NCBI GenBank assembly: GCA_947176605.1
Contig: CAMWRH010000007.1
Location: forward strand, 1-64,000
DNA: 64,000 nt
DNA from: an uncultured Porphyromonadaceae bacterium
GTDB lineage: Bacteria > Bacteroidota > Bacteroidia > Bacteroidales > Muribaculaceae
Reading direction: 5' to 3'
In this document: positions 2,816 through 8,345 of the stretch, one piece after another
How the letters are laid out: the number at the start of each line of letters is the position of its first letter
Numbering within the stretch: the first letter of the stretch is position 1
The notes under the pieces: model-generated
What the model was told of the DNA's origin: nothing
The model's database searches: none
Seen by the model: the letters and a program-made list of their open reading frames with translations, nothing else
Program-made: the position numbers and the translations under genes

Positions 2816-3925
2816 TTACCCTGAAATCTTGGCCGCACGATATCCACGTATATTCGAGCAGTATGTCTCATGTTTATACCGTGATACTGCCACTATCGCG
2901 CTAATACCGTTTTTTTCGGCCTCCCTGGCAATGGTACTGACCACTATGTCAGGCATCAGGCTTGTGGGCCGGGCCGATATGATACGCGCCCATTTTTCGG
3001 GGGATATAAGGGCATTATTGGCAAATTCATCAGCCTCAATATCCTCTTTGGAAGTTGATTTCCTGTCATCTCCAATGGAAATATATGATTTGCCACTTGT
3101 AAAATGCAGCTTGATATGCCCTAATTCATGCAGCACGTCAAACACAAGACGCTCTCTGTCATGATGTCTGTCGGCGACAGCTATGGCAGGCTTACCCTCC
3201 ACCATCATCGAACAGGCATTGACCGGAGCCCCGTCAAAAGCGGGTAACTGCAGATATGTGATGCCATTATTGCAAAGCACTTCCCTGATCCGGTCGCATG
3301 CAGGGTGGCTGCTATTTGCAATTTCGGCAACCTGTGCGGCTGCGGTGTCACAATTATCGGGGCAGTAGACTTGGGTGATTTCAGATCTTGCAGCCTCCGA
3401 CCATGCGAGAAGAAGCCATGTCCGCATGTTGACCTCATCAAACGTCCGGCTTTCATTGCGTGAGAAATACCCTACGGTATTTACTTCCAGCGCCTGGAGT
3501 CTGTTTAGATCAATGTCAAGCATCTCCTTAAGGGTCTGCAATCTGATTTCAGACTTCGGGCTGGAAATGTCGAAATACCTGTATAATGCATGGAGATTAA
3601 GACGTGAACCCAGTGATTGCTCTTCTGTCAAAGCTTCCAATCCGGCGGTGTCAAGTTGCGCTTGACGTTTGGTCACATAAAAATACCGGTTTTGCAGATT
3701 CATCCAGTTCTGGAAGGGGATTCCGAGGGCATCCTGCAGTTTTATGGCAATAGCTTCCGTGATGTTTCGTTTCCCTTTAATCAGGTCACTCAGATTCGGA
3801 GCCGGCATACCAATTGCAGCTGCAAAGTCTTTCTGCTTAATGCCACGGGCTTTAAGTTCCTTTTTCAGCACCACACCCGGATGGGTTGCGGTAATGGGGA
3901 TTATCGGGTTAGCGTTTGTTGCCAT
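2816..3925 (-). CDS. HigA-type XRE antitoxin fused to ImmA/IrrE-type metallopeptidase domain
   Basis: N-terminal HTH (HPGVVLKKELKARGIKQKDFAAAIGMPAPNLSDLIKGKRNIT); C-terminal zinc-peptidase motif VLHELGHIKLH; immediately follows a HigB-like ORF. Confidence 0.8.
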   Translation of the reverse strand: MATNANPIIPITATHPGVVLKKELKARGIKQKDFAAAIGMPAPNLSDLIKGKRNITEAIAIKLQDALGIPFQNWMNLQNRYFYVTKRQAQLDTAGLEALTEEQSLGSRLNLHALYRYFDISSPKSEIRLQTLKEMLDIDLNRLQALEVNTVGYFSRNESRTFDEVNMRTWLLLAWSEAARSEITQVYCPDNCDTAAAQVAEIANSSHPACDRIREVLCNNGITYLQLPAFDGAPVNACSMMVEGKPAIAVADRHHDRERLVFDVLHELGHIKLHFTSGKSYISIGDDRKSTSKEDIEADEFANNALISPEKWARIISARPTSLMPDIVVSTIAREAEKNGISAIVAVSRYKHETYCSNIRGYRAAKISG

Positions 3926-4232
3926 AATGAGTCGAATCTATTTCAATTAATCTAACTTCAATACCATCTTCATGTTCGGTAAACAGTAGCCTTTCTACGC
4001 GGCCATTATCTATCCTTACCGAACTTTCAGGCCGGTATCTTAATTTCTCATAATGCAGGTAGCTGTATGATTTCAGGTCATTTACCGTATCTACCGAGAA
4101 CATCAGATCTACGACCGCTATAAAATCGTCAACGAAACGTCTACTGCGGCATAGTTTCTTGTATCTGCTGTCTTTAGTCTTGCCTGTTTCATACATTTCC
4201 TGCAGGGAGTTGTCTGTAAAAGTAACGTTCAT
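3909..4232 (-). CDS. HigB/RelE-like toxin (start MNVTF)
   Basis: Small basic ORF overlapping the start of the HigA-like gene; sequence pattern RYKKLCRSRRFVDDF...LHYEKLRY resembles HigB. Confidence 0.6.
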   Translation of the reverse strand: MNVTFTDNSLQEMYETGKTKDSRYKKLCRSRRFVDDFIAVVDLMFSVDTVNDLKSYSYLHYEKLRYRPESSVRIDNGRVERLLFTEHEDGIEVRLIEIDSTHYGNKR

Positions 4233-4340
4233 GTGCGGTGAAATGATGCGCAAAGATAGTTGGAATTATCTGTTTTTGATAATTTTATTTGTTAAAATAA
4301 CCTAAACATAAATGCGTATTGGAATATTGGGGATAACAGC

Positions 4341-5995: not shown

Positions 5996-6477
5996 ATGCG
6001 TATGAAAGGTCACACTTCTACCTTTGCCATCGCTATGTCTGTACTCGTATTAACGGTGGCAGCTCAATCAGCTTCGGTTTCGGCTCAGTCGGGTGTCGCG
6101 GATACCGACAGTGTCGCGTCGGTTATGCCGAAGAGTGCAATTCCCGCAACGGTTTATGCCGACAGTGTCGCGTCGCCAGTGCCTGACCCGGCATTTACAG
6201 CAGGGGAATATGCCGATAATATGGAGTATTCGGATACTACGGATTACACAGATCTGGATGAAATCGTGATTACGGCCGACCTTCAGCAGCGTGAAGGAAC
6301 GCGCGATCTTATCACTGTCACCAAAAGCATGCAGGAATCATCGAAAAATACCGGCGAATTGATGGGGCAGGTGCCGGGAATGTTTTATAACACGCTGTCG
6401 GATGAACTCATATATCGTGGTTCGCAGAATGTGATTATACTTGTAGACGGTGTAAAGAAAGATGCCGGATATATAAA
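5996..6477 (+). pseudogene. TonB-dependent receptor, N-terminal plug fragment, truncated
   Basis: Signal peptide, LDEIVITADLQQREGTRD and plug-like YRGSQNVIILVDGVKKDAGYIK, then abrupt loss of homology at the IS110 junction. Confidence 0.75.
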
Positions 6478-6616
6478 GCTTTCTATAATCATTTCCAAAT
6501 TTTTTTTTTAAAAAAATGGAACTTTTGTCCAATTTATAATTGTAGAAGTCTCGATGGCTCAACGGGGGCTCCGCCCCCTCGCCGCCGGGCTTCCCCCGGA
6601 GAAGAGAGGAATGTCT

Positions 6617-7663
6617 TTATACTGCGGTTCCCCAATTCTTCTTTGATTTTGCATGCTTCTCAATATCGAACGGAGTATGATTGCGCACCATTGCCAGAAG
6701 AACGTTGATTACCTTGAACTTGCAGTTGTTTTTTGCCTTATACGGGTGAACTCCTCTTGCCACAAGCCTGTCATAATAAGGCCTTATGACCGGATTGTCA
6801 TGCACGATGGCACTGTTTACGCAGGCGGTGATGAGAGCATTTGTAGATCCGTCTCTGTACCTACTTGTACGTGCGGGCTTGTCAATGCTTGTCCCGGATT
6901 GCTTCCTGTGCGGAACAACACCGATATAGCATCCTAACTCTTTGGAATCGGTCATATTCTGAAAGTTCCTCGTCTTTATGGTCAGAGCGGCGATGGTGAC
7001 AAATCCGACACCCTTAAATGACTTCAGGATTTCGTATGTATGACTGAACTCCTCTGATTCCTTAAGCAGTTTCTCAATCTCCCTGTCTATTTTATTCAAG
7101 GTTTTCTTCACACTGTCAAGCTGGCTTAAAATCAACTTCCTTGCACACGGAGAATCATCGAGAGCTCCACTTTTGAGCTGATTGTTCTTGGCCACCTTGT
7201 CCTTTGTCAGCATGACATGGGCTGCATAAAGGGATTTGAGCTTTTTCATGTCCTGGCTGTCAAGAGAATACGCCTTGATCTCGTCGCTGTAATTCGTCAG
7301 GGCATATCTGGCTATCCTGCTTGAGTCGATCCTGTCGTTCTTTTCACGGACTATTCCACACTTGCGGTGGATAACCAAAGCTGATTCCAACCACATGAAA
7401 TATTTTTTCTTCGCAAGGTAGTCACAAAGGCCGATGCTGTACACACCGGTATGTTCTCCGCAAAAGATCCATGAGGACTTATCCTTCGCTTCAGGAGTTG
7501 GCTTCAAGGTGTTCTTCACCCATTTCTCGAACTCTCTGAATCCTTTGGAGTCGTTGTTGAACTTGTTGTAACCGAGCTCCTGGAAGCGGTCGTCCTCACG
7601 ACGCAACACAGTGGCATCGAAAGTTTTTTTGGAAAAATCTATTCCAATTGAAATTTTCTTCAT
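6617..7663 (-). CDS. IS110-family DEDD transposase/recombinase
   Basis: MKKISIGIDFSKKTFDATVL..., ...KNDRIDSSRIARYA..., C-terminal FKGVGFVTIAALTIKTRNFQNMTDSKELGCYIGVVPHRKQSG...; likely start at MKKISIG rather than the longer ORF. Confidence 0.9.
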   Translation of the reverse strand: MKKISIGIDFSKKTFDATVLRREDDRFQELGYNKFNNDSKGFREFEKWVKNTLKPTPEAKDKSSWIFCGEHTGVYSIGLCDYLAKKKYFMWLESALVIHRKCGIVREKNDRIDSSRIARYALTNYSDEIKAYSLDSQDMKKLKSLYAAHVMLTKDKVAKNNQLKSGALDDSPCARKLILSQLDSVKKTLNKIDREIEKLLKESEEFSHTYEILKSFKGVGFVTIAALTIKTRNFQNMTDSKELGCYIGVVPHRKQSGTSIDKPARTSRYRDGSTNALITACVNSAIVHDNPVIRPYYDRLVARGVHPYKAKNNCKFKVINVLLAMVRNHTPFDIEKHAKSKKNWGTAV

Positions 7664-7679
7664 ACCTTTATACTTTGAA

Positions 7680-7916
7680 ATATTAGAAATGACCGATATA
7701 ACTGCGGTGACTGACACTTTATTTTGGCTCTGAGCCCAGCTTTCTATTTTGTCTCCAGTTATAAAACCCACCGGATCTTCTGCGGTTATTTGGTTCAAGA
7801 CCAAGCGTACTGGTTAGTTTATCCGGTGGGGAGGTCATCTCCTTAATACAACAAAGGTAGAACAAACCTCGGTTTTTAACTAGAGTAAAAGCGAACTATT
7901 TACCAATTCGTCTTTC
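7680..7916 (-). ncRNA. Candidate IS110 bridge RNA (two guide-loop domains)
   Basis: Two stem/internal-loop/apical-hairpin domains (7767-7830 with 10-bp stem; 7697-7763 with 8-bp stem). Loop sequences match the IS/target junctions. RNA ends are estimated. Confidence 0.65.
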
Positions 7917-8154
7917 ACGATGCAAATATAAAGCGTACATACAGCTGGGCGTAGCCCAAGCTGTATGTGCGCGGACTGCATGTCTTCTCTCTATTACCCC
8001 CGCTGTCGCGGAGCGACAGCGGGGGTATACATTTACAGTCCACGCCTCGACGTATAGTGTTGTCGCTCCGCGACAAAGAATAAGTATGGAGGGCTTTTTC
8101 CGCGCACCGGCAGCCTCGGCTGCGCCTCGCCGCCGGTACGGTTATCAGGCCATG

Positions 8155-8345
8155 CAACCGCTCCGCGTTATAGCGGTCGGAAGACTAAGTTTTGAGTTGA
8201 ACTGATGGTTTTCTAAGCCCAATGGACTTGACTTCGTGACGTTCTATATAATAAGTTGGACAATATCTATTGGCTGTTTCATACTATTAGAACACATAAC
8301 AACCACCTTTTTTAGTCTTCCGACCGCTAGAACGCTCCGCGGTTG
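8155..8345. repeat. MITE-like segment with ~34-bp imperfect terminal inverted repeats
   Basis: Arms 8155-8188 and 8312-8345; inner 17 bp perfect (agcggtcggaagactaa / ttagtcttccgaccgct), 30 of 34 positions paired by my count. Confidence 0.5.

What the first reader, a model, noticed from the sequence alone, without database searches (positions are those of the whole stretch)
7680..7931. IS110 leader encodes a bridge-RNA-like structure whose loops match both IS/target junctions
Seen: on the transposase strand, the leader folds as two stem/internal-loop/hairpin domains. Domain 1: 10-bp stem 7767-7776/7821-7830 with apical hairpin 7790-7804. Domain 2: 8-bp stem 7697-7704/7756-7763 with apical hairpin 7726-7736. 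In domain 1, GTACGCTT (7803-7810) is identical to the left target plus core at the LE flank (7931-7938). In domain 2, ATAGAAAGCT (7738-7747) is identical to the RE end plus CT core (6477-6486). The 3' side of domain 2 has AUAAAG, complementary to CT+TTAT at the LE start (7928-7933); the 3' side of domain 1 has AUAA, complementary to TTAT on the TonB side (6473-6476). Knowledge: IS110 recombinases of the IS621 type use a bridge RNA with target- and donor-binding loops and a CT core. Inference: this is a natural bridge RNA caught with its own insertion site.
Basis: partly seen in the sequence, partly recalled or inferred. Interest (0 to 1): 0.8.

Follow-up and report, generated by a model that had tools for sequence, protein, structure and literature searches.

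The report
RNA-guided IS110 element in palindromic repeats

Summary
The leader of this IS110 element encodes a genuine bridge-RNA-type RNA: 5' stem-loop, target-binding loop, donor-binding loop. The structure covaries across nine relatives (14 of 18 pairs change on both sides; 0/500 shuffles). The guide loops track each relative's own flanks (the true left-flank assignment is the best of 40,320; only 6 right-flank assignments are as good).

Two details of the finding are wrong. Exchange is after one invariant C (core NC, not CT), so the left-target match is GTACGC, not GTACGCTT. And the TonB side is not the right target: the right target guide reads GGTTA. I predicted the intact site GTACGC|GGTTA and found it in a dispersed palindromic repeat of the same genome (9 exact copies, control 1); the IS left flank is such a repeat cut exactly there. 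A second species carries a 42-bp remnant of the element at the same repeat position.

The right flank, inside a truncated TonB-receptor gene, mimics the element's own left end for 7 bp, suggesting a later recombinase-made deletion. All eight elements with both ends would rebuild a Bacteroidetes promoter (TTG-N20-TAnnTTTG) at the circle junction.

Verdict: new member of a known kind, with junctions informative about excision.

The parts
6617..7663 (-). IS110-group recombinase gene, 348 aa, DEDD residues D9, E70, D110/D113 and serine S256
   Evidence: PF01548 and PF02371 over cut-off; 0.01-level PDB matches IS621 and ISCro4 at E 1e-12 to 1e-14; catalytic residues invariant in 8 relatives
6479..7932 (-). 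Whole element; shared core C at 6478 (RE) and 7933 (LE)
   Evidence: LE end C|TTTATATTTG in ten close LE copies, RE end ATAGAAWG|C in three full copies; left boundary confirmed by intact repeats
7885..7918 (-). 5' stem-loop of the bridge RNA
   Evidence: fold; stem kept with different sequence in L022 and L023 by eye
7767..7830 (-). Target-binding loop: stem 7821-7830/7767-7776, apical hairpin 7790-7804
   Evidence: all 11 counted pairs of stem and hairpin change on both sides among relatives
7805..7810 (-). Left target guide GUACGC
   Evidence: equals left flank 7938-7933; guides match own flanks across relatives, best of 40,320 assignments
7782..7788 (-). Right target guide UAACCGC (reads GC-GGTTA)
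   Evidence: predicted the intact site found in the repeats; right guides vs flanks 6 of 40,320
7697..7763 (-). Donor-binding loop: outer stem 7756-7763/7697-7704, hairpin 7726-7736
   Evidence: conserved in L022 and L023; inner stem covaries, 3 of 3 pairs
7739..7747 (-). Left donor guide AUAGAAAGC
   Evidence: identical to the RE end plus C, 6486-6478
7717..7722 (-). Right donor guide AUAAAG
   Evidence: complementary to C-TTTAT at LE, 7933-7928
7923..7930 (-). -7 promoter box TATATTTG in LE
   Evidence: TTG-N20-TAnnTTTG across the RE-LE junction in 8 of 8 elements, 0 of 8 integrated left flanks
6496..6499 (-). -33 promoter box TTTG in RE
   Evidence: 20 nt from the -7 box only in the circle form
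7933..8020 (-). Left half of a dispersed palindromic repeat, cut at GTACGC: the original left target
   Evidence: 88% identical to the intact repeat at G000:C6:38519-38659 up to the IS
6471..6478 (-). Present right flank C-TTTATAT, mimic of the LE start; not the original right target
   Evidence: same 7 nt as 7932-7926; absent from intact repeats
5996..6478 (+). 5' part of a TonB-dependent-receptor-like gene, truncated by the IS
   Evidence: homologues of about 720-750 aa in the genus run on through the cut; rest not found in the genome

Best explanation
An IS110-group element of a Bacteroidales-type bacterium that uses a bridge RNA. After excision the joined RE-LE ends of the circle form a Bacteroidetes-type promoter that transcribes the leader as bridge RNA (and the recombinase mRNA). 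The first RNA loop (guides GUACGC and UAACCGC) selects the 11-bp target GTACG-C-GGTTA, the conserved centre of a dispersed palindromic repeat; the second loop (AUAGAAAGC and AUAAAG) holds the donor junction of the circle; the DEDD/serine recombinase exchanges strands after the C. This copy was inserted in such a repeat, and its right neighbour was later replaced by the 5' part of a TonB-receptor gene, most likely by a deletion in which the RE junction recombined with a chance mimic of the LE junction in that gene. Shown by sequence: structure, guide-flank agreement, intact sites, promoter halves. Inferred: transcription, recombination activity, and the route by which the right flank was replaced (about 45% for the route given).
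For: Covariation of the RNA and unaided consensus fold. Guides match own flanks in relatives with entirely different targets. Right-guide prediction GGTT(A) confirmed in intact repeats of the same genome: pattern with hairpin 3 hits, control 0; 11-mer 9 hits, control 1; repeat alignment cut exactly at the IS. Independent 42-bp remnant at the same repeat position in G058. Recombinase features. Circle-junction promoter in 8 of 8.
Against: No RNA or recombination data. The right flank of this copy does not match the right guide. The core differs from IS621 (NC, not CT). LE ends of the distant relatives were placed by me using the donor pairing and the C rule, so the permutation tests are not fully blind for those. 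The genome is a 145-contig draft.
Confidence: 0.9

Rival explanations
1. Right flank, rival 1: two copies of the IS, one in the repeat and one inserted off-target in the TonB gene, recombined by ordinary homology in direct orientation, leaving one hybrid copy with mixed flanks and deleting the DNA between.
For: Gives flanks from two sites, both exact at the IS ends; IS621 off-target insertions at donor-like sites are reported (PMC11208160).
Against: Needs a prior insertion at a site that fails the right target guide; no second copy or copy end in the assembly; the G058 remnant shows a junction that this route does not make.
Confidence: 0.3
2. Right flank, rival 2: the contig is chimeric, with the left flank of one copy and the right flank of another joined through a collapsed IS.
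For: Draft metagenome-type assembly; IS copies are typical misjoin points; receptor 3' part missing.
Against: No other contig of this genome contains or ends in any part of the IS.
Confidence: 0.15
3. One reading: CT core, right target TTAT in the TonB gene, one original site.
For: In this copy alone CT is present at both ends and AUAA lies in the right internal loop.
Against: The RE-side base after C is A in both full homologues; AUAA is at another loop offset than in the homologues; intact repeats have GGTTA; the receptor gene does not continue on the left side of the IS.
Confidence: 0.03
4. The leader structure is an ordinary 5' UTR or regulatory element of the transposase, and the loop matches are chance.
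For: A single-sequence fold is only moderately better than shuffles; no Rfam match.
Against: Guide loops change in step with flanks in relatives; prediction of the intact site succeeded.
Confidence: 0.02

Closest known systems
IS621 and its bridge RNA (IS110 group; PMC11208160, PMC11208158)
   Same: RNA in the LE upstream of the recombinase; 5' stem-loop, target loop then donor loop; left guide reads bottom strand, right guide top strand, both overlapping at the core; junction promoter rebuilt in the circle; insertion into repetitive extragenic palindromes
   Different: Invariant core base is C (NC) instead of T (CT); promoter is of the Bacteroidetes -33/-7 type rather than sigma70 -35/-10; different repeat family; recombinase only remotely similar (phmmer E 3e-12)
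ISPpu9, ISPpu10, ISPa11 and other IS110 elements in REP sequences (PMC1525189)
   Same: REP-type palindromic repeat as address
   Different: Other hosts (Pseudomonas) and repeats; no relationship between the repeats was tested
IS1111-group seekRNA elements (PMC11187229)
   Same: RNA from the non-coding region guides target choice of a DEDD transposase
   Different: In IS1111 the RNA lies at the other end and the order of top- and bottom-strand matches is reversed; here the RNA is upstream of the gene, as in the IS110 group

Membership tests
[quoted passage not shown]
   60.9 and 50.5 bits, both over the curated cut-off; NCBIfam NF033542 134 bits, just under its cut-off of 140
IS110 family recombinase | DEDD residues and conserved C-terminal serine | tested here: met
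   D9, E70, D110, D113, S256 invariant among 8 relatives and aligned with IS621
IS110 group (versus IS1111) | Long non-coding LE carrying the RNA, short RE | tested here: met
   269 nt before the ATG, about 140 nt after the stop; RNA in the LE
Bridge RNA | Two internal-loop domains with conserved, covarying structure | tested here: met
   14 of 18 pairs with changes on both sides, 0/500 shuffles
Bridge RNA | Target-loop guides match left (bottom strand) and right (top strand) target around the core | tested here: met
   11-bp target in intact repeats; permutation tests over relatives. Not met by the present right flank, which is judged to be secondary
Bridge RNA | Donor-loop guides match the RE end and LE start | tested here: met
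   AUAGAAAGC = RE end plus C; AUAAAG pairs C-TTTAT
IS621-type core | CT core dinucleotide with near-invariant T | tested here: not met
   C is invariant at the exchange point; the base before it varies (G, A, C) and the base after it is not shared
IS110 group | Promoter rebuilt across the RE-LE junction of the circle | tested here: met
   TTG-N20-TAnnTTTG in 8 of 8 predicted junctions, by sequence only
Bridge RNA | RNA is expressed, binds the recombinase and directs recombination | not testable with these tools
   needs RNA-seq, binding and recombination assays

The most novel reading that the evidence does not exclude
The right flank here and the 42-bp remnant in G058 are fossils of mis-targeted, bridge-RNA-guided excision: the RE junction (left donor + right target) recombined with chance mimics of the LE junction (left target + right donor), ..CGC|TTTATAT in the TonB gene and GTTCGC|TTTTAC inside the element itself. 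If so, excision is read by mixed use of the two loops (left target guide + right donor guide at LE, left donor guide + right target guide at RE), a point the IS621 structural paper leaves open, and IS110 elements delete neighbouring DNA by the same code.
Probability: 0.35. Interest if true: 0.65.

Novelty: new member of a known kind. Interest (0 to 1): 0.42.

Why it matters
It shows that the natural address of a bridge RNA can be read from an uncultured genome well enough to predict the intact site before looking, and that the plan holds in Bacteroidales-type bacteria with a different core base and a lineage-specific junction promoter. The rearranged right flank and the second-species remnant give concrete junctions with which to ask whether IS110 excision, not only insertion, is guided by the bridge RNA.

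Tried and rejected
Rfam scan of the window: nothing. Protein-pattern scans of genome contigs and viral contigs: no relatives; an exact donor-loop DNA pattern found only the two genomes already known and nothing in viral contigs. Plasmid and phage collections hold only remote IS110s, about 30% identical at best. Search for the missing 3' part of the TonB gene in the own genome: empty, but the query was a distant homologue, so this is weak. Rejected: that both flanks are one original site (the receptor does not continue left of the IS; the left flank is half a repeat). Rejected: CT core (ends of relatives disagree). Handshake-guide pairing was checked by eye and fits only L023; not followed. The 8-bp donor outer stem and the 5' stem-loop are not aligned well by MAFFT across distant relatives and were left out of the covariation count. 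A covariance model was not built, since the permutation tests and the intact-site prediction had answered the question.

Full report
What is there. The minus strand of 6479-7932 is an intact IS110-group element: a 348-aa recombinase (7663-6617) with both IS110 Pfam domains, related to the solved IS621 and ISCro4 enzymes, with the DEDD residues and the serine (D9, E70, D110/D113, S256) invariant among relatives. It is the only copy, and the only IS110, in its 145-contig genome. The 269-nt leader carries the reported stems at the reported coordinates.

Is the structure real? The single fold is moderately good (z -2.7). The stronger evidence is comparative. In 9 sequences (two close relatives, 66% and 53% identical in the protein, and six distant ones, about 29-36%) the target stem, target hairpin, donor inner stem and donor hairpin keep pairing in 89% of cells, with 14 of 18 pairs changed on both sides and 40 cells with double changes. 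No shuffle of 500 reaches any of the five measures, and sliding by one column nearly halves the pairing. RNAalifold finds the target stem and donor stems unaided; the target hairpin was added by me.

Do the loops read the flanks? In the close copies the 50-nt target loop region aligns without gaps, so the guide position is fixed. At that position the left guide equals the element's own left flank: GTACGC here, GGAATCAC in L022, TCACGC in L023, TCAACCCCC in L006. The same holds in distant relatives (AAAAAAGC, TGAGTAAC, AATTTAA, ACCCC). Over eight elements the true pairing of guides and flanks is the best of all 40,320. Right guides match right flanks (ATCTGT/ACAGAT, CTTTGC/GCAAAG, CACGGGT/ACCCGTG); 6 of 40,320 assignments do as well when the intact repeat is used for this copy, 11 with its present flank. 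Caveat: the LE ends of the distant relatives were placed by me from the right-donor pairing and the C rule.

Core. The base before TTTAT is C in all ten close LE copies, and the RE end is followed by C in all three full copies, but the base after that C at RE differs (T, A, A). So the exchange is after C; the core is NC, not CT.

The prediction. In this copy the right guide UAACCGC predicts GC-GGTTA, but the actual right flank is C-TTTATAT in a TonB-receptor gene. I therefore searched for hairpin-GTACGC-GGTT as the intact site. It occurs three times in the same genome, control none, in copies of a dispersed palindromic repeat whose left half, 88% identical, is exactly the IS left flank and stops at the IS. 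The 11-mer GTACGCGGTTA occurs 9 times in this genome and 9 times in G058 (reversed-pattern controls 1 and 3) and in none of four other genomes of the genus. G058 repeats have other hairpins but the same GTACGC|GGTTA centre; one G058 repeat holds a 42-bp piece of this element's LE between GTACAGC and GGTTAACAGG, an independent insertion at the same position.

The right flank. The receptor gene is cut at 6478, does not continue left of the IS, and its 3' part was not found in the genome. The flank C-TTTATAT equals the element's own LE start for 7 nt after the C (about 6e-5 by chance at a fixed position; simple calculation). Receptor homologues have YIK-R codons that in one case read ACGC|TTTATATA on this strand (L062), a mimic of the LE junction GTACGC|TTTATAT. 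The G058 remnant ends at GTTCGC, which in the window's element is followed by TTTTAC, again a partial mimic of the LE junction, and is joined exactly to the right target. Both fit recombination of the RE junction with a false LE junction. Off-target insertions resembling the donor, and rare deletions and inversions, were reported for IS621 (PMC11208160); whether natural excision is driven by the bridge RNA was left open (PMC11208158). Homologous recombination between two copies, or a chimeric contig, are not excluded.

Promoter. RE and LE of all eight elements with both ends known combine to TTG-N20-TAnnTTTG; none of the eight integrated left flanks provides this. TAnnTTTG at -7 and TTTG near -33 is the consensus of the Bacteroidetes primary sigma factor (PMC7366714). 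This is the counterpart of the sigma70 junction promoter of IS621 (PMC11208160; PMC11208158).

Placement. Every tested defining feature of an IS110-group element with a bridge RNA is met except the CT core. REP-type targets are known for IS110 elements (PMC1525189). So it is a new member of a known kind; the excision fossils are the part that could be new. That the host is Bacteroidales is inferred from the names of the relatives' records and the promoter type.

Noticed in passing
G000, tens of places, e.g. C6:38519-38659 (L079, L084); window 7933-8020 (-) and 8099-8174 (+): A dispersed palindromic repeat family; hairpin arms vary between copies and between species, but the centre GTACGC-GGTTA is kept. 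Some copies lie in facing pairs, like bacterial interspersed mosaic elements. What maintains it was not examined.
   Followed up: partly
G058:C66 (L007, about 1499-1541, - strand): A 42-bp remnant of the LE of the same element inside a repeat, ending exactly at the right target; looks like a scar of a misplaced excision.
   Followed up: partly
L024-L030: A wider Muribaculaceae-type group of IS110 elements (about 30-36% identical recombinases) with the same RNA plan and a very conserved donor loop (ATAGAAnG..TAGGCTnnGAGCCTATTTA).
   Followed up: partly
G032 (L006 and L018): Two copies of a close relative sit at the same short sequence GCGCTTCAACCCCC in two places, matching the left guide TCAACCCCC; the target again seems to be a repeat.
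   Followed up: no
window 5996-6478 (+): TonB-dependent-receptor-like gene broken by the IS; the rest was not found in the genome.
   Followed up: partly
window 2816-4253 (-): Two neighbouring genes that by eye look like a HigB-type toxin (3909-4253) and a HigA-type antitoxin fused to an ImmA/IrrE-like peptidase (2816-3925).
   Followed up: no
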